From positions 1 through 50,026 of IMG/VR virus record IMGVR_UViG_3300010413_000052: a DNA stretch of 50,026 bases. One strand, given 5' to 3'. Every line of letters starts with the position of its first letter. Position 1 is the first letter of the stretch. The stretch is from a virus. Of this stretch, positions 3,829 through 50,026 are shown piece by piece. The translations under genes and the position numbers were made by a program. Below the pieces are notes generated by a model. The model saw only the letters and a list, made by a program, of their open reading frames with translations, searched no databases and was not told where the DNA came from.

Positions 3829-4280
3829 TCAAAATGTAATTCAGCATATTCATTAGCATATTCTAATGGAATACAAAAACCTTTACTTGTAGGAGTAGAA
3901 TTAGGAATAAATAACCAATCTGGTTTTTCTTTATGTAATCTTATTAATGTCTTTTTAGAAAAAATCCAAAAATCTTTTTCATCGCCGATACCAAATAACC
4001 AACAATTATCATTCCTATAAATACCACTTAAAATATAAAATTCATTTAATGGGTGCGATTTTTCATGTGTTTCAATATATAAACGATTTGTTTCCCTAAA
4101 AATCTTATCATTTTTTATTTCTAATCCTAAAAGATTCTCCATATATCTTTGATATTTTTTAGAACCAATATTTTGAATAATAATTCCAACAGTACATAAT
4201 TTAAAACAAATATAATCCTGAAATTCTAAAGAATTTTCAAGCTGTAATTTATATATTTTATTATAATCCGATTCGCTCAT
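3822..4280 (-). CDS. Putative PD-(D/E)XK nuclease-like protein
   Basis: The protein has an EIK triad (about residues 54-56) followed 13 residues later by IETHEK, within a predicted alpha/beta region, and ends with a conserved-looking TPTSKGF segment. This resembles small phage proteins with a PD-(D/E)XK nuclease-like core, but the classical first Asp is not obvious. The gene begins inside the 3' end of the ParB/adenine methyltransferase gene, overlapping by 20 bases. An upstream ATG at 4301 would add 7 residues (MDGIDME). The overlap with a DNA methyltransferase raises the possibility of a nuclease-methyltransferase pair; this is inference. Confidence 0.5.
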   Translation of the reverse strand: MSESDYNKIYKLQLENSLEFQDYICFKLCTVGIIIQNIGSKKYQRYMENLLGLEIKNDKIFRETNRLYIETHEKSHPLNEFYILSGIYRNDNCWLFGIGDEKDFWIFSKKTLIRLHKEKPDWLFIPNSTPTSKGFCIPLEYANEYAELHFEW

Positions 4281-5418
4281 TTCCATATCTATCCCATCCA
4301 TCTACATCAGCCCTAGAAAACAATTCAATTCGTGGACCATGCGGATATAACATATCAATAATAGCTCTAAATTCTTTTGGTTTCTCAGAATGTTCTTTTG
4401 TTTTTTTAATTTCAATAACCGAATTTATTCTCTCATCTATATCCGGTTGACATGAACCTTTAACACAAACCAATAAAATTTCATGTTGAACACTATTATA
4501 ATATCCCCAATTATGAGAAAGTTTATTCCATATAAATGAAGTTTTATATTTAAAACCCCAAGAATTTATAACATCAAAAGCATCTTCTAACATAGGACTT
4601 GTAGTCCATAAAAACAATACTGAATCTTTTAAACTAATAGAATCTACATCTAATTTACAAATCTCCTCAAGAGGCATTGTTTCATAATGTTTAGCTGCAT
4701 GACCGTAATTTTCTGTGTTGCCACTATTACTGTATTCCCAGGGTGGATCAGCATAAATAACACGATATTTACCTGTGGGCCATTCTGTTTTTTCCAGTTT
4801 CTCAATTCTATCTTTTTTCTTTTTCTTAGCTCTATCTGCCCTTATTTCTTTTGCTGCAGCAAGTATTTCTTTTTCACCTTTTGCAACTATTTCATTTTGC
4901 TGTTCTTTCGGGAGCTGCGCTACCTCGGATGCCGTTGACACAGCTACCTTCCCATCCTCAACCATTTTTACAAGATCTGGTGTGCCTTTAGTGTTTACCT
5001 GTCGAGCACGCTGCACAGATGGGACACTTACATTCATCATAGTGGCAGCTTGATCTTGGGTAGATACATCAATTGAGGTATCTACCCGATCACTTCTAAC
5101 ACCACGAGGTAAACCAGCTATTTTATCCGCTATCAGTGACCTTTGGCTTTCGTTCAAGTGGCGACGGTGTAGATTCATACGTACTACAAAAGAAAGTGGA
5201 TCATCACCAAATGCAGTAGTAAAAAAATCTATTTTTGGTTCAATATTTAATAATTCACAGGCTTTAAATCTGTTTCTACCATCTAATATTTTTCCTTGAT
5301 ATAAAATAATTGGTAAATCTAATCCATTATTTTCTATACTTTTTATTAATTCATTAAAAGTAACATCATCCATCATAGGAAAAAGATTTGCTATTTCATG
5401 AAATTCATATTTTTTCAT
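4261..5418 (-). CDS. ParB-like domain fused to MT-A70 adenine methyltransferase
   Basis: Residues 1-90 match the ParB/Srx fold (LYQGKILDGRNRFKA, then RMNLHRRHLNESQR), followed by an HTH-like part (AATMMNVSVPSVQRA) and a Lys-rich linker. From about residue 217 there is an MT-A70 methyltransferase with the catalytic DPPW at 224-227 and a C-terminal IELFSR motif typical of this class. It probably methylates adenine N6 in DNA, with the ParB/HTH part giving site binding. The fusion is known in phages and prophages. The likely job is protection from host restriction or marking of the phage origin. Confidence 0.85.
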   Translation of the reverse strand: MKKYEFHEIANLFPMMDDVTFNELIKSIENNGLDLPIILYQGKILDGRNRFKACELLNIEPKIDFFTTAFGDDPLSFVVRMNLHRRHLNESQRSLIADKIAGLPRGVRSDRVDTSIDVSTQDQAATMMNVSVPSVQRARQVNTKGTPDLVKMVEDGKVAVSTASEVAQLPKEQQNEIVAKGEKEILAAAKEIRADRAKKKKKDRIEKLEKTEWPTGKYRVIYADPPWEYSNSGNTENYGHAAKHYETMPLEEICKLDVDSISLKDSVLFLWTTSPMLEDAFDVINSWGFKYKTSFIWNKLSHNWGYYNSVQHEILLVCVKGSCQPDIDERINSVIEIKKTKEHSEKPKEFRAIIDMLYPHGPRIELFSRADVDGWDRYGNERIGL

Positions 5419-5424
5419 TTTATT

Positions 5425-6042
5425 TTATCCAAACAACACTCTTGAATATCTCTTAAAAAGATCTTCTATTCCACTAATCACACTCTTCATTATTGGATGA
5501 CAATTAGGTTTTGTCCGAAGCGTAAATATGTGTTTCCATTCTCTCAGATTACAACCTATCACAATTTCAGCTTTTAGTCCAATTGGAAGTACTGACCGTG
5601 CGATTTGTGCAGGTACACCTTCATTAATAAGGCGTAGATAATATCGCTCTGAACGCTGCATTGCCCTTTTCCACCAAAATTCTTGGTGTTCAGTTAAACC
5701 AGGTTGTTCAATGACAGTAATAGTTTCTCCAAACTTACCTTTTGAATAGTTACACCAACGTGTACTCTCTTGGGCAAAAGACGCCAGCCGATGTCTCACC
5801 AATTCATGTGTAAAACCTCGGTCTGCTACAATAAAGACTACAGCATACCCAAACTCTAACATAGCATGATGACCGTTTTTTTGAAGCATTCTGATAAATT
5901 CATTTGCAGAATTCGATCCGCTAGAACCAGGACTCGATTGATAACAGACCCGGCCTATTCTCTCAATTAGTGCCTCTATATTTTCACCGGAGTCAGGTTC
6001 AAAAAATACAACGTCTTTTATATAAGGTTTTATTATATTCAT
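5425..6042 (-). CDS. thyX: FAD-dependent thymidylate synthase ThyX
   Basis: The ThyX signature RHRxxSxxxxSxR is present as RHRLASFAQESTR at residues 83-95. The enzyme makes dTMP from dUMP with folate and reduced FAD. At 205 residues it is at the short end for the family (often 210-250). ATG 6042 has an AAAGGA ribosome site. It is the first gene of the left minus-strand block, downstream of a candidate promoter. With the dCMP deaminase at 11296 it forms a dCMP to dUMP to dTMP route. Confidence 0.93.
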   Translation of the reverse strand: MNIIKPYIKDVVFFEPDSGENIEALIERIGRVCYQSSPGSSGSNSANEFIRMLQKNGHHAMLEFGYAVVFIVADRGFTHELVRHRLASFAQESTRWCNYSKGKFGETITVIEQPGLTEHQEFWWKRAMQRSERYYLRLINEGVPAQIARSVLPIGLKAEIVIGCNLREWKHIFTLRTKPNCHPIMKSVISGIEDLFKRYSRVLFG

Positions 6043-6083
6043 TATATCCTTTCTATTCAGAAATTAATTTCCAAAGTATTTTT

Positions 6084-6112
6084 ATACTACATTCATACGG
6101 GACCAAATGCAA
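6084..6112 (-). promoter_or_regulatory. Candidate sigma70-type promoter for the thyX block
   Basis: On the minus strand, TTGCAT (6112-6107) and TAGTAT (6089-6084) are separated by 17 bases. A transcript would begin about 35 bases before the thyX ATG and include its ribosome site. The match is moderate and rests on sequence alone. Confidence 0.4.
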
Positions 6113-6136
6113 CAATTTTAAAGCCCTTAAAATGCC

Positions 6137-6406
6137 AGTGACACCTCAAAAAGTCGAAAAAATAACAAATTTCAAAACAATTTCAAATATTTACTAATGT
6201 AGCCAAAGAATAGCCCAATTTCAGCCGAGAGATATTTCTGGGGTGTTTGATGTACCATACATAATAATACATATAGCATAAAACACACACCACCAACATC
6301 CCAGAAATTAGTTTTGGAGTCAAATGACACTATTCTTTGGCTACCAATTTATCTGTTTGAAATTATTGAAAAATTCCTTAAATCTATGATTTTTTGAGGT
6401 GTCACT
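6137..6406. repeat. Imperfect palindrome of about 270 bp (nested inverted repeats)
   Basis: Several inverted-repeat blocks share one centre at about 6271.5. AGTGACACCTCAAAAA at 6137-6152 pairs with 6391-6406 (16 of 16). AATTTCAAA at 6179-6187 pairs with 6356-6364. GTAGCCAAAGAATAG at 6199-6213 pairs with 6330-6344 (15 of 15). ATTTCTGGG at 6234-6242 pairs with 6300-6308 after a 1-base shift. The parts between the blocks are degenerate copies. The whole could fold into one long hairpin or cruciform. It holds no open frame. It may be a MITE-like element, an origin structure or a structured RNA; no clean target-site duplication is visible. Confidence 0.85.
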
Positions 6407-6439
6407 AAGGCCAATTTTTGGTGATCAGAAGTTGTGTAA

Positions 6440-6540
6440 TTTTTCAGTAAAGATAAAACAGCTATAATTCTTAAATTTAATAAAAATAAGGATTTTAAAC
6501 TTTTTATTTTTACTGTAATTTTTACACTTTTATTGAATTT
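6440..6540. other. Very A/T-rich non-coding stretch (origin candidate)
   Basis: This stretch between the palindrome and the first early gene is almost entirely A and T, richer than its surroundings. A/T-rich DNA next to an inverted-repeat structure, in front of the early replication genes, is what a DNA unwinding element would look like. No iteron series was seen, so the origin call is tentative. The rest of the 6043-6573 gap contains only the palindrome and the promoter features listed. Confidence 0.3.
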
Positions 6541-6562
6541 GACTATTTTAAAAGAGGTGTCA
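6514..6562 (+). promoter_or_regulatory. Candidate early promoter with operator-like dyad
   Basis: TTTACA (6521-6526) and TATTTT (6544-6549) are spaced by 17 bases and read towards the first early gene. The -35 box lies inside a perfect dyad TGTAATTTTTACA (6514-6526). The motif GAGGTGTCA at 6554-6562, near the expected start point, also occurs at 6396-6404 and inverted at 6139-6147 in the arms of the palindrome. The arrangement suggests repressor or activator sites. An overlapping alternative uses TTGACT at 6539. Confidence 0.4.
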
Positions 6563-6573
6563 TAGTAAATCCC

Positions 6574-7119
6574 ATGAAAGATTTCGTTTATTTTATAAAT
6601 AGGGCTTTTAGTCGTTGGACAATCAACAAGATTAATGACTGGATACTTGACTCAAATTCTCAGTCTATAGTTGTTAAAGGCATAAATGGTGCCGAGTATA
6701 CATTTGATAAAGATGAATTTGATTCAAAATTTTTGAAAAAAAGATCAGAAGTAATTTTGAGAATGAGAGAAAAGAAAAGAAAAGTGGAGGAAAACAAAAA
6801 GAAAAAAGTTGAGGAAAACAAAAAGAAAAGAGCAGAAGAAAACAAAAAGAGACATAAAATAGAAAAAGAAAATGAGAAAATAATAGAACCAACACGAAAA
6901 CTTTTTACAATTTTAGTAAAGAAATTACTATCAAAAAAACAAACAAATGAAATAAAACAGATTATAAAAACACTTCGTCAACTCAGAGGTGGTGAAGAAA
7001 TAGATACCTTCTGGTTGCGTCCGACTATGACAATGCTTTTGTCAGAATATCCCGATTTAGATTTAGACAAATTGCACAGATTTTGTGTGCCGTCGCTGAC
7101 AGATCCCTGGACAATATAA
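6574..7119 (+). CDS. Hypothetical early protein with Lys/Glu helical repeats
   Basis: It is the first gene of the rightward early region. The middle part consists of near-repeats of EENKKK(K/R) coded by tandem repeats around 6780-6860 and should form a long charged helix. The flanks (residues 1-60 and 115-181) look globular. There is no membrane segment and no recognised domain. No strong ribosome site precedes ATG 6574. Its place next to the putative origin and before the primase hints at a role in replication start or early regulation, which is inference only. Confidence 0.6.
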   Translation: MKDFVYFINRAFSRWTINKINDWILDSNSQSIVVKGINGAEYTFDKDEFDSKFLKKRSEVILRMREKKRKVEENKKKKVEENKKKRAEENKKRHKIEKENEKIIEPTRKLFTILVKKLLSKKQTNEIKQIIKTLRQLRGGEEIDTFWLRPTMTMLLSEYPDLDLDKLHRFCVPSLTDPWTI

Positions 7120-7159
7120 AAAACCCCGTCCAGAAAAACCCTAGAAAACCTGGACGGGG
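7117..7159 (-). terminator. Strong hairpin; terminator geometry on the minus strand
   Basis: A perfect 10-bp stem, CCCCGTCCAG (7124-7133) with CTGGACGGGG (7150-7159), is followed on the minus strand by a run of seven T, so it has Rho-independent terminator form for leftward transcripts. Read rightward it lacks a T run and leads into the GGAG-rich leader of the primase gene. It may stop antisense transcripts before the origin region, or act as a leader hairpin. Confidence 0.6.
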
Positions 7160-7196
7160 CGAAAAGGAGCACACAGAAAGAGGAGGCACTCTATTA

Positions 7197-7253
7197 ATGT
7201 CTACCAAAAAATATTTCTTGAGTCAACTACAATTGCGTGCTACTGTGCAATGA
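7197..7253 (+). CDS. Short leader ORF coupled to primase-helicase
   Basis: ATG 7197 is preceded by the best ribosome site in the area (GAGGAGG) and opens an 18-codon frame (MSTKKYFLSQLQLRATVQ). It ends with TGA at 7251-7253, one base before ATG 7255 of the primase-helicase gene, which has no ribosome site of its own. This is the usual layout for termination-reinitiation coupling. A sequencing frameshift joining the two frames is the alternative. Confidence 0.45.
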   Translation: MSTKKYFLSQLQLRATVQ

Positions 7254-7254
7254 T

Positions 7255-9705
7255 ATGCATTTTTGTATATTCGCGCACACAGAAGATAACCAGCCAAAAC
7301 CTCAAGAAAAACCATGGAAATGGCTGGCTATGAGCCTGACAAAACACCGTGAAACATCGGTAGATAAGAATGCACCGGGACGGGTAGAGATCCCACTTCT
7401 GTCTTTTGTCACTTACAAGCCTGGTACGCTGCGAGCAAAATACAATGTACAGACTGTAAACGCAGCAGCGTTGGACATAGATTATATAACATCTGAAGAA
7501 TGGAATTCTATACAACGAATTTTAGAACAGAACGAGATATCCTCTTTTTGGTACACCACTTTTAGTCATCAACTACACGATCGACCAGACAATTTCAAGC
7601 TACGTCTATGCCTAGAACTGTCCAGGCCAGTTACAGGTCAAGAATGGGCTCAAATTTTTCCATTTTTTAAAGAGCATTTTCAAGCGGATTCAAATGCAAG
7701 TGATGCAAGTCGAATGTTTTTCGGTCCCTTTATACCGTCGGGTACACAGCACTTGCACTTTTCTGGTATTCAAGAAGGTTCACCTTTTGACGTAGACAAT
7801 TTACTTAAAGTGCAAAAACGTCCACCTACAGTGGTCGATCTACCACCAGAACCATCCATAACTGTCACAAAAGAAATGCTTACCAAACTGTCAGCAGATT
7901 TAAAACGCCGGTCTGACACGTACTCACAGCTGGCAAGCAGTATGATAAGACACTTGCGTGATGGTGAAAAGTTTACAGAAGAAGGTCACAGGGATGAAGC
8001 TGTTTTTCGTTATATAATTTCTTCAATAGTAAAAAAATGGCCTAATTTGAATACTACTGAACTAACAGCACTTGCAACACCATCATTAGAATTAAATGGT
8101 GGTGTGACTCCTGATCAATTTACATATAAAGTTGAACGTGCTAAACAAGAACGGCAAAAATACTTAGAAGATAACTACTTAAAACAAAAACAAAAACATG
8201 AAAATTCAATTGCAAAAACCAACACAAATAGACAACTTGTGGGAATGGATGCATATTATATAAATGACACCTTACCAGTAATAACGGCAACGACTTTTGC
8301 AAATAAAGAACTTGATATCCCGATCGGACAAGCAAAAATAGTGCAACATCAATCTGATTTTTATTTTTGGTGTAATGGCACTTATCATGGTCCTGTACAG
8401 AAAACAGCTTTTATACAAGCTGCAATTAAATATTTATCACCTTTTGAGGAAATAGAAGTTGAACTTTTTGATAGTTTTGGAAACCTTAAAGAAATTAATT
8501 TAGAAAACTTTTTATCACAGCACAGTACTTTTGTAAAAGAAGTGGTTTTTGCGCTGGGAAGTAACCAAACCGCATTAACAAAAGATGCACTGGTACTGCC
8601 TTATTATCCGCCTTTGACACAACCGCTTGAATATTCTTGGAGGGTTGACCATTGGATCAAGTTCCTGTTTAGCGGCAAGTCTGAGCCATCTGAGAGAGGA
8701 TGGGAACGTGTTAAGTGGGCTTGGAAATGGTTATGTCATTACCAGGATCACAATGTTCTTTTGCCGGCCATACTCCTTGTAGGTGCTACTGGTGCCGGCA
8801 AGGGGTTATTTGCCGAGTGGTTATCACAAGCCTATGAAATACCTGCTAATGTAGTGTCACTCAATCTATTGTATAATAGTGGCACTGAAAATGATGTGTA
8901 TCCGGTTATGGTAGCAGATGAGGAATTCCCGGACTGCAGTTCAGCGCAACTTAGAGAAGGTATAACAGCACGCAACCATATTCTGAAGAAAAAGTACCAG
9001 AATATACGCAGAGTAACCGGGTACATACGGCACATTTTAATTCTAAATGACGCTGATCGAATTAAGACTTTTGATGTCGGCGTAGAAGCACAACGTGCTA
9101 CAGCTGAACGTTTTATGTACGTCAATGTAACAGAGAAGTGCCGCGAATATCTAGAGGCACTCGTAAAAGGGAATGAGCTGTTACAACCGGGCGAGCTGCA
9201 AAAGCATATTGCATGGTTAAGGGAACAAAACCTGTATAATAGACTTGATCCCGGCCGTTTTGGTGTAGCAGTACCAGAAGACAACCAAGCCTTTTATGAG
9301 ACGTTTTACCGACAGAAAAACAGATTTGCAGTGTTGAATGTAATCTGTGATTTTATATGTCGAGATAGCTATCCTATAGGCATGATCGAAAGATATGGTA
9401 AATGGCCTATTGAAGTGACAGAAACAGGTGAAGTAAAGATTCGATCTGCACCTTTTGCAGCATACTGTGAAGATAAACTTGAAAACCGATCTAAGGCGTC
9501 ATTGGGTCAAGTGGTAAAGTCCATATCAGAACCAGTAAGAACGGCAAAAGAACGGTATTGGCGCCTGCAGAAAACCCACATTTATAGGTGGGCAGAAATA
9601 GCGATGGAATATTCTGATGAAGAGATCAAGGATGGTTTAAATACCACGACCGAATCAAAAGTTGACTCGGCCGTGGTAATAGAAAAAGAGAAGTGGATTA
9701 ATTAG
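7255..9705 (+). CDS. Primase-helicase (PrimPol/VapE-like, DUF5906 ATPase)
   Basis: The N-terminal ~200 residues hold an archaeo-eukaryotic-primase-like part (ALDIDYIT, FWYTTFSHQ, RLCLELSRP). The C-terminal half is a superfamily-3-like helicase with Walker A GATGAGKG at about 510-517, an acidic VADEEF and a later ILNDADRI. It likely primes and unwinds the phage origin. The start at 7255 is chosen because it sits one base after the stop of a leader ORF with a strong ribosome site; GTG 7237 in the same frame would add six residues but also lacks a site. The 3' end contains a long hairpin. Confidence 0.88.
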   Translation: MHFCIFAHTEDNQPKPQEKPWKWLAMSLTKHRETSVDKNAPGRVEIPLLSFVTYKPGTLRAKYNVQTVNAAALDIDYITSEEWNSIQRILEQNEISSFWYTTFSHQLHDRPDNFKLRLCLELSRPVTGQEWAQIFPFFKEHFQADSNASDASRMFFGPFIPSGTQHLHFSGIQEGSPFDVDNLLKVQKRPPTVVDLPPEPSITVTKEMLTKLSADLKRRSDTYSQLASSMIRHLRDGEKFTEEGHRDEAVFRYIISSIVKKWPNLNTTELTALATPSLELNGGVTPDQFTYKVERAKQERQKYLEDNYLKQKQKHENSIAKTNTNRQLVGMDAYYINDTLPVITATTFANKELDIPIGQAKIVQHQSDFYFWCNGTYHGPVQKTAFIQAAIKYLSPFEEIEVELFDSFGNLKEINLENFLSQHSTFVKEVVFALGSNQTALTKDALVLPYYPPLTQPLEYSWRVDHWIKFLFSGKSEPSERGWERVKWAWKWLCHYQDHNVLLPAILLVGATGAGKGLFAEWLSQAYEIPANVVSLNLLYNSGTENDVYPVMVADEEFPDCSSAQLREGITARNHILKKKYQNIRRVTGYIRHILILNDADRIKTFDVGVEAQRATAERFMYVNVTEKCREYLEALVKGNELLQPGELQKHIAWLREQNLYNRLDPGRFGVAVPEDNQAFYETFYRQKNRFAVLNVICDFICRDSYPIGMIERYGKWPIEVTETGEVKIRSAPFAAYCEDKLENRSKASLGQVVKSISEPVRTAKERYWRLQKTHIYRWAEIAMEYSDEEIKDGLNTTTESKVDSAVVIEKEKWIN
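9643..9677 (-). terminator. Hairpin in primase 3' end, possible leftward terminator
   Basis: The arms 9643-9656 and 9664-9677 form a 14-bp stem with a 7-base loop. In rightward RNA two positions are A-C mismatches, but in leftward RNA both become G-U wobbles, so the stem is complete only on the minus strand. It lies 84 bases beyond the stop of the minus-strand gene 9761-10015 and could end that transcript. The T tract after it is poor. Confidence 0.35.
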
Positions 9706-12212: not shown

Positions 12213-12514
12213 AAAAAACATTAACAAGAAATAAGAAATTATATTGGGGTTACCTGACCGGTATCCTGGGTTACCTGACCGGTATCCGGGGTGACCTGAC
12301 CGGTGTCCGGGGTGACCTGACCGGTGTCCGGGGTGACCTGACCAATGTCTGGGGTTACCTGACCGATATCCGGGGTGACCTGACCGGTGTTTGGGGTAAC
12401 CTGACCGGTGTCCGGGGTGATCTGACTGGTATCCAGGGTGACCTAGATGATTGTGAAATTACATATGAGGACCGGGAAAAAGGTATAGATATTAAAGACC
12501 TAATCCAAGAGTAA
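12209..12514 (+). CDS. Heptad-repeat (pentapeptide-like) protein
   Basis: After a basic start (MKKTLTRNKKLYW) the protein has ten consecutive 7-residue units of the type G(D/Y)LTG(V/I)(R/W), coded by 21-bp tandem repeats at 12248-12457, then an acidic tail (DDCEITYEDREKGIDIKDL). Such regular short repeats usually form a narrow beta-helix or stacked coil, as pentapeptide repeats do. The AAGGAG site decides the start at 12209. Similar proteins with the same DDCEI tail occur in phages as hypothetical. A DNA-mimic role like that of some pentapeptide proteins is speculation. Confidence 0.75.
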   Translation: MKKTLTRNKKLYWGYLTGILGYLTGIRGDLTGVRGDLTGVRGDLTNVWGYLTDIRGDLTGVWGNLTGVRGDLTGIQGDLDDCEITYEDREKGIDIKDLIQE

Positions 12515-27545: not shown

Positions 27546-29168
27546 TTATCTTGAAACTAAAGAATAAATAGATGATTCCGATCCTTGTTGTCCAAGATCA
27601 GACCATGTTAGTCCACGATCAATTGATTTTAATATTTTACCATGTGTAGAAGTACCAGCGAAACAAACATTTTCTCTTGAAGTATAAGTTAGACTTCTAA
27701 TTACTGTTTCACCTGCTTGTTGTCCAAGACTTTCCCATGTTAAGCCATAATTAATTGATCTAAGAATTAAACCACCATTTCCTGTACCAGCCAAACAAAC
27801 ACCGTTTCCTATATGCAATAAACAATAAATAGCAGTTTGAGAATATTGTTGTCCTAAATCAGACCATGTTAATCCATAATCAACAGATCTAAAAATTTTA
27901 CCGGAATTATAAGTACCTGCTAAACAAATTCCAGATCCTAAATAACATAAAGCATATACTTGAGTTTCAGAATCTAATTGTTGAATTTCTGACCACGTTA
28001 ATCCATAATCTATCGATCTAAAAATTTTACCATTAGATCCAGATCCAGCTAAACATATCCCAGAACCCGCATATGCAAAACATCTAATTGATATTTCACT
28101 TTCCTGTTGTCCGAGATTTGACCATGTTAATCCATAATCTATTGATCTAAGGATTAATCCGCTAGATTGTGTACCAGCTAAACAAACACCATTTCCTATG
28201 TGTATTAAAGAGAGAATAGAAGTTTGTGAATATTGTTGATCTAAATCAGACCATGTTAATCCATAATCAACAGATCTAAAAATATGTCCACCAGTAGAAG
28301 TACCAGACAAAAAAATTCCAGATCCCAAATAAATTAAAGATAAAATGTATGTTTCAGATCCCTGTTGTCCTAAATCTGTTATAGTTGTACCATAGTCAAT
28401 AGATCTAAAAATATGCCCACCAGTAGAAGATCCAGCAAGCAAGGTTGATAATTGATCTACTAATACACACCAAGTAAATGCAGGTTTATATTTTAAAATA
28501 AGATTTTTTAATTGTGTTATTCTCTGTTCGTCTACAATTAAAGCATCTACAACAGGCGAAGAAGGCCATCCAGAAGATGCACTACCCACCCAAAAAACAT
28601 ATCTCCAAGCCCAGTGTGCGTTAATTTCTGTCGGTATTAAGTACGTTTTTAGTGTTTTAGTTACATTTAAATAATATCCAGAATATGCTCTACTATGCCC
28701 AGCAAAAGCAATACTTGAATTCGCAGCTAAATAATATGCAGGACTTTGATCAGTATATATTTTACCATTAACAACAAGTTCAGAATCTATACCGTCAGAG
28801 ATATCTACATCATCTGGATCAACTACAGGATTGTTTTCAATCACAATTGCATCTTCAAATCCTGCATTAATTAAAGCATTTTGTAAGTGTTCCCATGAAG
28901 CTGTAGTAGGACGTTGATAAACAATATGCGCTAACATCTGCCTACGGACAGATTCAGATAATGAAGAATTTGGTATAATACCATATTCACGTTCTAAATC
29001 TGAAAGATTACCTGTACGTCTTGGATCTCTAATATATGCAATAAGTTGAATTTGATCATATATGCTCTGATAATCTTCTGCTAATCCATCTAAAAGTTTA
29101 GAAAAATCACCTTCTTGATCAATATCTGTAGGCCAAAGTGTTTCTAATAATGTTTTAAAATCAAACAT
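27546..29168 (-). CDS. Mu gp48-like baseplate protein fused to a seven-repeat propeller
   Basis: Residues 1-150 match the gp48/YmfQ type of baseplate protein (LLETLWPTDIDQEG, DPRRTGNLSDLEREYG, RRQMLAHIVY). From about 250 there are seven repeats of ~43 residues with Asp-box-like cores (RSIDYGLTWSDLGQQ), a number that would close a seven-bladed beta-propeller. Such a domain at the tip of the tail is a good receptor-binding candidate. A very similar seven-repeat array lies at 43658-44683. Confidence 0.75.
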   Translation of the reverse strand: MFDFKTLLETLWPTDIDQEGDFSKLLDGLAEDYQSIYDQIQLIAYIRDPRRTGNLSDLEREYGIIPNSSLSESVRRQMLAHIVYQRPTTASWEHLQNALINAGFEDAIVIENNPVVDPDDVDISDGIDSELVVNGKIYTDQSPAYYLAANSSIAFAGHSRAYSGYYLNVTKTLKTYLIPTEINAHWAWRYVFWVGSASSGWPSSPVVDALIVDEQRITQLKNLILKYKPAFTWCVLVDQLSTLLAGSSTGGHIFRSIDYGTTITDLGQQGSETYILSLIYLGSGIFLSGTSTGGHIFRSVDYGLTWSDLDQQYSQTSILSLIHIGNGVCLAGTQSSGLILRSIDYGLTWSNLGQQESEISIRCFAYAGSGICLAGSGSNGKIFRSIDYGLTWSEIQQLDSETQVYALCYLGSGICLAGTYNSGKIFRSVDYGLTWSDLGQQYSQTAIYCLLHIGNGVCLAGTGNGGLILRSINYGLTWESLGQQAGETVIRSLTYTSRENVCFAGTSTHGKILKSIDRGLTWSDLGQQGSESSIYSLVSR

Positions 29169-43657: not shown

Positions 43658-44683
43658 TTAAAAAACCTTACTTAATGATAAAATATCTGATTGAGAATAT
43701 TGTTGTCCGAGATCAGACCAAATTTGACCATAATCTATTGATCTAAAAATATGTCCATTATTATTTGAACCAGCTAAACAAATTCCATTTCCTAAATATT
43801 CTAAAGATTCTATTCTTATTTCAGAACCTTGTTGACCTAAATCTGACCATGTTGCACCATAATCTATTGATCGTAATATTTTGCCATGATCATAAGTACC
43901 AGCTAAACAAATTCCATTTTTTACTTTTTTTAAAGATAAATGTTCAAGTTCAGAAGCTTGTTGCCCAAGATCGGACCATGTGACACCATAATTTATTGAC
44001 CTAAAAATTTTACCTGTTAACCCTCCACCAGCTAAACAAATTCCATTTCCTAAATATTCTAAAGAAGCAATATATGTAGGACCATAATTACCTAAATCTG
44101 ACCATGTTGCACCATAATCTGTTGATCGTAATATTTTACCTGCCAATCCCGTACCAGCTAAACAAATTCCATTTCCTAAACAAGTTAAACTCAGTATTCT
44201 ATCCTGTGAATATTGTTGTCCAAGATCAGACCAATTTTGACCAAAGTCTGTTGATCTAAAAATTTTACCTAAAGGATATGATCCAGCTAAACAAATACCA
44301 TTACCAACATACGCTAAAGATAGTATCATTTGTTCAGATGCTTGTTGACCTAAATCTGACCATGTTGCACCATAATCTGTTGATCGTAATATTTTACCTG
44401 CCAATCCCGTACCAGCTAAACAAATTCCATTTCCTAAACAAGTTAAACTCGATATTCTGTTTTGACTTCCTTGTTGACCTAAATCTGACCATGTTGCACC
44501 ATAATCTGTTGATCGTAATATTTTACCTCCGTTTTGTGTACCAGCTATAATTATTGAATATAATTTTTCAAAAAGACCAGAACCATTTCCTATAACAGTT
44601 CTATAACCACCAGAAATTACTTTCTTAGGAGGAATTAAACCTTTTCCGTTTGGTTTAATATTATTTCCAATAAAAGAGACCAT
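43658..44683 (-). CDS. Seven-repeat beta-propeller (Asp-box) protein
   Basis: After ~50 residues, seven repeats of about 43 residues follow, each with a core such as KILRSTDYGATWSDLGQQ and a closing NGICLAG. Seven repeats would close a seven-bladed propeller. The start MVSFIGNN is chosen for AAGGTTGG upstream and because it lies 8 bases after the previous stop; ATG 44734 would overlap that gene by 44 bases. Two blades share a 103-bp identical stretch. Likely a virion surface or receptor/glycan-binding protein. Confidence 0.7.
   Translation of the reverse strand: MVSFIGNNIKPNGKGLIPPKKVISGGYRTVIGNGSGLFEKLYSIIIAGTQNGGKILRSTDYGATWSDLGQQGSQNRISSLTCLGNGICLAGTGLAGKILRSTDYGATWSDLGQQASEQMILSLAYVGNGICLAGSYPLGKIFRSTDFGQNWSDLGQQYSQDRILSLTCLGNGICLAGTGLAGKILRSTDYGATWSDLGNYGPTYIASLEYLGNGICLAGGGLTGKIFRSINYGVTWSDLGQQASELEHLSLKKVKNGICLAGTYDHGKILRSIDYGATWSDLGQQGSEIRIESLEYLGNGICLAGSNNNGHIFRSIDYGQIWSDLGQQYSQSDILSLSKVF
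44090..44192. repeat. 103-bp perfect direct repeat in propeller gene (copy 1)
   Basis: These bases are identical to 44348-44450. The offset is 258 bases, exactly two blades of 43 codons. The identity at DNA level points to recent duplication or gene conversion between blades. Confidence 0.9.
44348..44450. repeat. 103-bp perfect direct repeat in propeller gene (copy 2)
   Basis: Partner of 44090-44192, two blades upstream in the coding sense. Recombination between the copies would add or remove two blades. Confidence 0.9.
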
Positions 44684-49070: not shown

Positions 49071-49277
49071 TTAAAAAAACATTAAATCAAATAATTTATC
49101 ATAACAAGATCCACATAAATGCAATAAATCGGTATTTTTATAATTTTCTCCTTCTATTTCTAAATTCTCTCTATTTATTTCTACATAATCATTAGAACAA
49201 TTATTTTCACATTTATCACAATAAATAGATTTTATTACAGACTTATATACTCTTATTTGTTTAAATACTATTGTCAT
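49071..49277 (-). CDS. Small zinc-finger-like protein
   Basis: Two Cys pairs (CDKCENNC and CGSC) about 35 residues apart could form one zinc site in this 68-residue protein. It overlaps the small terminase end by 17 bases. Function unknown. Confidence 0.55.
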   Translation of the reverse strand: MTIVFKQIRVYKSVIKSIYCDKCENNCSNDYVEINRENLEIEGENYKNTDLLHLCGSCYDKLFDLMFF

Positions 49278-49875
49278 TTATTTCACCAGCTTCTATTTTA
49301 GATAAATAATCTGACATTATTCTTTTACAGTGTCCAAGTACATTCCACACTTCTTTATCTATTTTTTCTCTTACTTTTGCTATTACTTCAGGATCTTCTA
49401 CTCCACATATACTACATATTTCGGGTGATATTTTCGTTGCAAGTGGTATCAACTGACTTGAGTCTACTGACCACAATTTATTAAATATTTGTGAAACTGC
49501 TTTTCTATTTACAAGCTCACCACGAAACTTTTCATTCTTTAACTGCTTTTCTCTTATTGCTTCCCGTTCTTTTAAATTACGTAATTGACTAAAATCGTTT
49601 ATATCTTCTATCCCATCTAAACTAATTTCAGTTTCTTGTTTTGGTTTAGTTTTTCGTGCAGATCTTGGTTTAGGAACACTGGTTTGTGTATTTGCTTTAA
49701 TAATTTCCAATCCTTCTACATTAGTTGGATCTGTTATGTCATATTTTCCTTTATATGTTCCCTTTCCTACTTTAACAAGTAGACCTTTTTGTTCTGCGAT
49801 ACGGATTGTTTTCTCATCAATTCCGCACCTTTTTGCTAACCCTCTACCACTATAACAATTCTTATTTTTAGGCAT
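49261..49875 (-). CDS. terS: Terminase small subunit (Nu1-like)
   Basis: The N-terminal ~45 residues are a helix-turn-helix (GRGLAKRCGIDEKTIRIAEQ) as in Nu1-type proteins. Then come a Lys/Thr linker and a helical oligomerisation part (LKEREAIREKQLKNEKFRGE). It starts about 150 bases from the genome end and would bind the GCGGAAT repeats there. Order terS, terL, W, portal is lambda-like. Confidence 0.72.
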   Translation of the reverse strand: MPKNKNCYSGRGLAKRCGIDEKTIRIAEQKGLLVKVGKGTYKGKYDITDPTNVEGLEIIKANTQTSVPKPRSARKTKPKQETEISLDGIEDINDFSQLRNLKEREAIREKQLKNEKFRGELVNRKAVSQIFNKLWSVDSSQLIPLATKISPEICSICGVEDPEVIAKVREKIDKEVWNVLGHCKRIMSDYLSKIEAGEINDNSI

Positions 49876-49887
49876 ATAATTTTATTT

Positions 49888-49990
49888 TGCGGATTAAAAT
49901 GCGGAATGCAAATTTTAGTGCGGAATTAATAAACTATAAATATACTGTAATTCTACTCACATTAGAATTTTTGCGGTTCTGCTGGAATTC
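49888..49990. promoter_or_regulatory. TGCGGA(A/T)T repeats, candidate terminase-binding (cosB-like) sites
   Basis: TGCGGATT at 49888, TGCGGAAT at 49900 and TGCGGAATT at 49919 are direct repeats upstream of terS. TGCGGTTC at 49972 and the inverted GGAATTCC near 49984 are weaker relatives. They lie between the terS start and the end repeat, where lambda has cosB with its R sites. The A/T-rich background makes these G/C cores stand out. Confidence 0.5.
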
Positions 49991-50011
49991 CGACACTAGT
50001 TTTTTTCTGCC

Positions 50012-50026
50012 CGGCGCGAACAACCT
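50012..50026. repeat. Right copy of 15-base terminal direct repeat (cos candidate)
   Basis: The last 15 bases equal the first 15. Read across the junction, the island is CCCGGCGCGAACAACCTGGG, with short dyad ends (CCC/GGG). A 15-base overlap is not a common assembler word length, which leans towards a biological cohesive end but does not prove it. Confidence 0.75.

What the first reader, a model, noticed from the sequence alone, without database searches (positions are those of the whole stretch)
6137..6406. A 270-bp nested palindrome in the main non-coding region
At least four inverted-repeat blocks (16, 9, 15 and 9 bp) share one centre at about 6271.5, and the DNA between them is degenerate in the same symmetry. 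It lies between divergent gene blocks, next to an A/T-rich stretch and upstream of the primase-helicase. It may be a replication origin, a transcribed long hairpin RNA or a decayed MITE. The GAGGTGTCA end motif recurs at the early promoter, linking the structure to regulation.
Basis: partly seen in the sequence, partly recalled or inferred. Interest (0 to 1): 0.8.

Follow-up and report, generated by a model that had tools for sequence, protein, structure and literature searches.

The report
Phage replication origin shaped like palindrome
In a little-known virus of bacteria, a 270-letter stretch of non-coding DNA that reads almost the same on both strands is most likely where the virus starts copying its genome, because a tested start site on an E. 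coli mobile island and matching stretches in unrelated phages have the same mirror-image layout.

Summary
The palindrome is real. Window 6137-6406 pairs with itself around 6271.5 over 135-bp arms (84 of 135 positions). It is the strongest such structure in the 50-kb virus, a contractile-tailed phage, and in about 1.7 Mb of other DNA scanned. It lies in the largest non-coding gap, next to an A/T-rich stretch and 0.83 kb upstream of a primase-helicase gene.

Best reading: a replication origin. The end word TGACACCTC led to phage intergenic arrays of TGTGACACC. Five distinct arrays are palindromes with 105-138-bp arms; several lie right after primase genes. Marinobacter phage PS3, found by primase homology alone, has the same structure with a different word. 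As a positive control, the gap holding the ori of the E. coli island EcCICFT073 (published plasmid assay) is also a palindrome with 133-bp arms. Different words sit in nearly the same mirror-symmetric layout.

The window is a reduced variant: one inward site per arm, distinct inner blocks, and a primase outside the recognised VapE family. A MITE is unsupported: no copy or matching inverted pair appeared in the collections searched. Telomere-resolution and packaging sites are also disfavoured. An RNA role has no positive support but is not excluded. Function is inferred, not shown.

The parts
6137..6406 (.). 270-bp quasi-palindrome, centre 6271.5; proposed initiator-binding core of a replication origin
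   Evidence: 84/135 symmetric matches; top score in window and in 1.68 Mb scanned
6137..6152 (+). Left outer block AGTGACACCTCAAAAA, inward-pointing site
   Evidence: 16-bp perfect pair with 6391-6406; same place and orientation as the outer iterons in other origins
6391..6406 (-). Right outer block, same word inverted
6169..6187 (+). Left B block: two ATTTCAAA copies 11 bp apart (AATTTCAAA at 6179-6187 is the paired one)
   Evidence: 9-bp perfect pair with 6356-6364; second most over-represented 9-mer of the gap
6356..6364 (-). Right B block TTTGAAATT
6199..6213 (+). Left mid-arm core GTAGCCAAAGAATAG
   Evidence: 15-bp perfect pair with 6330-6344
6330..6344 (-). Right mid-arm core CTATTCTTTGGCTAC
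6325..6330 (+). TGACAC, an outward-pointing site in the right arm at +53.5 from the centre (compare +50.5 in EcCICFT073)
   Evidence: a single weak site, could be chance
6234..6247 (+). Left inner block ATTTCTGGGGTGTT, one base out of register with 6295-6308
   Evidence: pair I9, 93%
6295..6308 (-). Right inner block AACATCCCAGAAAT
6248..6294 (.). Centre rich in alternating purine-pyrimidine; proposed loop or melting point
   Evidence: RY alternation 0.78 in 50 bp, reached by 0.12% of windows in the genome
6442..6518 (.). A/T-rich stretch (84%) with its own weak palindrome; proposed unwinding element
6554..6562 (-). Third GAGGTGTCA, just upstream of the rightward operon; possible initiator autoregulation site
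   Evidence: function inferred
5425..6042 (-). thyX (FAD-dependent thymidylate synthase), first gene of the leftward block
   Evidence: Pfam Thy1 1.3e-34, NCBIfam thyX above cut-off
6574..7119 (+). 181-aa charged protein of unknown function, first gene of the rightward block
   Evidence: no family match above chance
7237..9705 (+). 822-aa primase-helicase, candidate initiator
   Evidence: phrog_3228 replicative helicase-primase 1.2e-7, phrog_256 7.8e-5; N-terminal region aligns to VapE-type primases at hhalign E 4e-4, probability 35%

Best explanation
6137-6406, together with the A/T-rich stretch to its right, is the phage's replication origin. A phage-encoded initiator, most likely the 822-aa primase-helicase, binds inward-pointing TGACACCTC sites at the two ends and further mirror-image sites inside. 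This would assemble two facing complexes around the centre, so that the centre or the adjacent A/T-rich DNA melts and two helicases load for bidirectional copying. The third site at 6554 may let the initiator regulate its own operon. Shown here: the palindrome, the words, the gene context and the shared geometry with other elements. Inferred: origin activity, the identity of the initiator, and the melting site.
For: Positive control: the 288-bp gap after pri-rep of EcCICFT073, whose rep and ori were both needed for normal maintenance in a plasmid assay (PMC6092414), is a palindrome with 133-bp arms scoring 35.4 against a null maximum of 13.4; it is the best in 26 kb. Marinobacter phage PS3, chosen by primase homology only, has one with 119-bp arms right after its primase. 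Five distinct TGTGACACC arrays have 105-138-bp arms: two directly follow VapE-type primases and one a Prim-Pol. In 1.68 Mb scanned, before the CFT073 control was fetched, the top seven distinct registered palindromes are these and the window. Sites are mirror-symmetric, with outermost inward pairs at about 110-139 bp from the centre; the window's are at 132.5. L018 shares 19 bp with the window end. The gap is the largest in the genome, beside A/T-rich DNA and a primase-helicase.
Against: No function was measured. The window has only one inward TGACACC site per arm, where the others have several. The TGTGACACC arrays were found using the window's own word, so they are not fully independent; PS3 and EcCICFT073 are. 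Among 21 named VapE phages only PS3 has a registered long palindrome. The origin lies upstream of the primase, not directly after it. The window's primase-helicase has no Pfam VapE match. Two TGTGACACC arrays lie nearer terminase genes.
Confidence: 0.74

Rival explanations
1. A paired operator: a phage regulator binds the mirror-image sites and controls the two divergent operons, with no role in replication.
For: It lies between divergent gene blocks, and the third GAGGTGTCA is close to the start of the rightward operon.
Against: 270 bp of nested symmetry is far more than a usual operator; the geometry matches origin regions beside replication genes, one of them functionally tested.
Confidence: 0.12
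2. A transcribed long hairpin RNA, for example in the leader of the leftward thyX operon.
For: Very stable folds on both strands, z about -11; a weak promoter-like match points through it from 6519 on the minus strand.
Against: Any palindrome folds this well. G-U pairs are only 12 against 6 in favour of the minus strand, not significant. No Rfam match and no terminator-like site.
Confidence: 0.06
3. A decayed MITE or other mobile element with TGACACC ends.
For: Terminal inverted repeats of 16 bp and a palindromic body.
Against: No copy in phage, plasmid or E. coli collections; no same-spacing inverted pair in IMG/VR or GTDB; none of 69 GTDB loci or 53 IMG/VR loci with the end word has an inverted partner within 2 mismatches nearby; no direct repeat flanks it; two internal runs of 15 bp or more have P 0.0002 under even decay.
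Confidence: 0.04
4. A packaging (cos/pac) or telomere-resolution site.
For: Nested inverted repeats resemble the N15 tos site (from memory).
Against: The centre is the least symmetric part; no protelomerase in the genome; the small terminase gene lies at 49261-49875, beside the contig end, which coincides with the end of a relative.
Confidence: 0.04

Closest known systems
Replication origins of phage-inducible chromosomal islands (PICI/SaPI), e.g. EcCICFT073 (PMC6092414)
   Same: Non-coding about 270-bp region beside a primase-helicase gene; opposed recognition words flanking a centre. Registered palindrome of nearly equal arm length (133 against 135 bp), outer inward sites, and a single outward site at similar distance in the right arm (+50.5 against +53.5).
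   Different: EcCICFT073 has eleven TCTACC sites, the window has one inward TGACACC per arm plus different inner blocks. The PICI ori lies directly 3' of pri-rep; here it is upstream, in a divergent gap. The helicase family differs.
Gap after the VapE-type primase of Marinobacter phage PS3 and TGTGACACC arrays in IMG/VR phages (L087, L091, L097, L017, L018)
   Same: Palindromes with 105-138-bp arms; in L018 the outer word is identical over 19 bp.
   Different: Dense iterons, often 9 bp apart; different neighbouring genes; function of these is also untested.
Phage P4 origin with alpha primase-helicase (from memory, plus the mention in PMC6092414)
   Same: Origin recognised by a primase-helicase binding short words.
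   Different: P4 ori and crr were not compared here.

Membership tests
PICI-type replication origin | Two opposed sets of iterons flanking a melting region | tested here: inconclusive
   Opposed outer sites at +/-132.5, but one per arm instead of sets; other symmetric words inside
PICI-type replication origin | Lies immediately 3' of the rep/pri-rep gene | tested here: not met
   Lies 0.83 kb upstream of the primase-helicase with one ORF between
PICI-type replication origin | Cognate VapE-like/Pri-Rep initiator | tested here: inconclusive
   Helicase-primase by PHROG and weak primase-domain alignment; no Pfam VapE match
PICI-type replication origin | Registered about 270-bp palindrome (seen here in EcCICFT073, not a published criterion) | tested here: met
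   Arm 135 against 133, both far above null
PICI-type replication origin | Drives autonomous replication | not testable with these tools
   needs a plasmid assay
MITE | Terminal inverted repeats | tested here: met
   16-bp perfect ends
MITE | Target-site duplication | tested here: not met
   no direct repeat at either flank
MITE | Dispersed copies or a parent transposon with the same ends | tested here: not met
   none found in the collections searched
Protelomerase site (N15 tos) | Near-perfect central palindrome | tested here: not met
   centre is the least symmetric part
Protelomerase site (N15 tos) | Protelomerase gene | tested here: not met
   no PF16684 match in the genome
Known structured RNA | Match to an Rfam family | tested here: not met
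   no match at gathering score

The most novel reading that the evidence does not exclude
Phages and phage satellites with unrelated recognition words and different primase-helicases share one mirror-symmetric origin plan of about 270 bp: inward sites at the arm ends, an outward site and a non-iteron core in mid-arm, inward sites near the centre. The window is an extreme form that keeps the geometry while most repeated words are replaced by unique paired blocks, perhaps read by an initiator that recognises the pairing or spacing more than a single repeated word.
Probability: 0.3. Interest if true: 0.72.

Novelty: new variant of a known kind. Interest (0 to 1): 0.52.

Why it matters
It gives a testable origin for an uncultured phage lineage. 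It also shows that a simple scan for registered 200-280-bp palindromes picks out origin-like gaps in unrelated phages and in a PICI with a tested origin. If the shared plan holds, origins could be predicted from geometry without knowing the recognition word, and the common layout would suggest a shared way of loading two helicases face to face.

Tried and rejected
Relatives: scans of IMG/VR with the primase, methyltransferase and exonuclease proteins gave none. ThyX gave only distant relatives without a long palindrome. The large terminase gave one close relative (88%), whose contig starts at window 12.2 kb and lacks the region. Structure prediction of the primase-helicase failed (pLDDT 37). 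GC skew turns near 6 kb and 26 kb, but gene strand turns at the same places, so it is uninformative. The 21-bp tandem repeat at 12.2 kb was considered as an iteron origin and rejected, because it encodes a 7-residue protein repeat kept in frame in the relative. Most of the 53 and 69 loci with the end word alone look like chance matches. Streptococcal satellites Javan257 and Javan154 and most named VapE phages lack a registered palindrome, so the plan is not universal. Paper searches with the recognition word found nothing relevant.

Full report
What is there. The window is a whole 50,026-bp viral contig of a contractile-tailed phage: terminase, portal, protease, sheath and tape measure genes lie on the minus strand from 27 to 50 kb, and nucleotide and replication genes on the plus strand from 6.5 to 26 kb. 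The largest non-coding gap is 6043-6573, between thyX (minus strand) and a 181-aa gene followed by an 822-aa primase-helicase (plus strand). Inside it, 6137-6406 pairs with its own reverse complement around 6271.5 at 84 of 135 symmetric positions; the next best centre anywhere in the window reaches 63. Perfect runs of 16, 15 and 9 bp lie in spacers that match about 46%. Two runs of 15 bp or more have P 0.0002 if the same matches are spread at random. That points to discrete paired sites kept in register, not to even decay of an old perfect palindrome. Other 9-bp inverted pairs of similar spacing in the window enclose DNA that matches 28% on average, at most 42%; this one encloses 59%.

The word at the ends. 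GAGGTGTCA occurs three times in the window, at both ends and at 6554, and is the most over-represented word of the gap. A scan of IMG/VR for the 15-mer end gave 53 loci, most of them probably chance. A blind palindrome scan of the loci then held flagged L017, an unrelated phage with about ten copies of TGTGACACC right after a Prim-Pol gene. L011/L018 were second. A scan for facing TGTGACACC pairs gave 26 loci, about ten of them with dense arrays. Three of these follow VapE-type primase-helicase genes, L017 follows a Prim-Pol, one follows a DnaB gene, and one lies inside a replication-initiator gene; domain searches show VapE just before the array in a further record and about 6 kb away in another. 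Two lie nearer terminase genes.

The arrays are palindromes of the same size. Scored the same way, L087, L091, L097, L017 and L018 have registered palindromes with arms of 123, 105, 130, 113 and 138 bp, well above shuffles. Because these were found with the window's own word they are not independent, so two sets chosen without it were examined. In 21 named phages picked only for a VapE-type primase, several have facing iterons with other words in the gap after the primase, but only Marinobacter phage PS3 has a registered long palindrome: arms 119 bp, score 48.6 against a null maximum of 18, exactly in that gap. The second is the PICI EcCICFT073 of E. coli CFT073, for which a published plasmid assay showed that both rep and ori matter (PMC6092414). 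The 288-bp gap after its primase gene is a registered palindrome with 133-bp arms, score 35.4 against a null maximum of 13.4, and the best in 26 kb. In a scan of 1.68 Mb made before that control was fetched, the top seven distinct palindromes are the window, PS3 and the five arrays.

Shared layout. Relative to the centre, sites are mirror-symmetric. In EcCICFT073 they are at 110.5, 101.5 (inward), 50.5 (outward), 33.5 and 22.5 (inward) on both sides. PS3, L087, L091 and L097 show the same order, two or three inward, one outward, two or three inward, with different words and one missing site in L087. The window keeps the outer inward pair at 132.5 and has one outward TGACAC at +53.5, but the rest of its pairs are distinct words (AATTTCAAA, GTAGCCAAAGAATAG, TTTCTGGG). 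Its centre is unusually rich in alternating purine-pyrimidine, as in L087, and an A/T-rich stretch lies to the right.

How it probably works (inferred). An initiator binds the facing sites, two complexes form around the centre, DNA melts there or in the A/T-rich stretch, and helicases load in both directions. The 822-aa protein is the best candidate: it is a primase-helicase by PHROG match, although it has no Pfam VapE match and only a weak primase-domain alignment to VapE-type proteins. None of this was measured.

Rivals. A MITE would need copies, a parent element or a target duplication; none was found. A hairpin RNA is possible, since both strands fold strongly, but nothing favours one strand. 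A telomere-resolution site would need a symmetric centre and a protelomerase, and neither is present. A packaging site is more likely at the contig end, next to the small terminase gene, where a relative's contig also ends. A paired operator between divergent operons is the most serious rival, and could also be true at the same time.

Status. It works like a PICI/VapE-type origin but is not filed as a member: it is not 3' of its primase, lacks sets of repeated iterons, and its initiator family is unsettled. I call it a new variant of a known kind.

Noticed in passing
window 12246-12444; L068 68-1365: A GC-rich 21-bp tandem repeat (GGGGTGACCTGACCGGTGTCC) in this A/T-rich genome encodes a 7-residue repeat (GDLTGVR). 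The relative has two adjacent paralogs with many more copies, and its contig starts at this repeat.
   Followed up: partly
window 49261-50026; L069 end: The window and the relative contig (38,004 bp) end at the same aligned position next to the small terminase gene, suggesting a defined genome end or packaging site.
   Followed up: partly
L204 11997-12284 (NC_004431 about 1383996-1384283): The origin region of EcCICFT073 is a registered palindrome with 133-bp arms and a mirror-symmetric layout of TCTACC sites; I did not see this described in the passages read of PMC6092414.
   Followed up: yes
window 27696-28412 and 43694-44528: Two distant open reading frames share 129-bp-period repeats, probably repeat-rich structural or fibre proteins.
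   Followed up: no
window 7124-7161: A GC-rich inverted repeat (CCCCGTCCAG ... CTGGACGGGG) lies between the 181-aa gene and the primase-helicase gene, without a T-run after it.
   Followed up: no
L114, L123, L128, L134, L140, L156, L160, L163, L167, L170, L172, L174: Amphibacillus sp. MSJ-3 has a dispersed element AGTGACACCTCAAAAAcATTTAAGAGGTGATGA in at least a dozen contigs; its first 16 bases equal the palindrome end by apparent chance.
   Followed up: no
window 4261-5418: A ParB-like N-terminal region fused to an MT-A70 methyltransferase sits next to thyX; full-length relatives occur in rhizobial phages.
   Followed up: partly
window 6780-6888: 24-bp tandem repeats inside the 181-aa gene encode a lysine/glutamate-rich stretch.
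   Followed up: no
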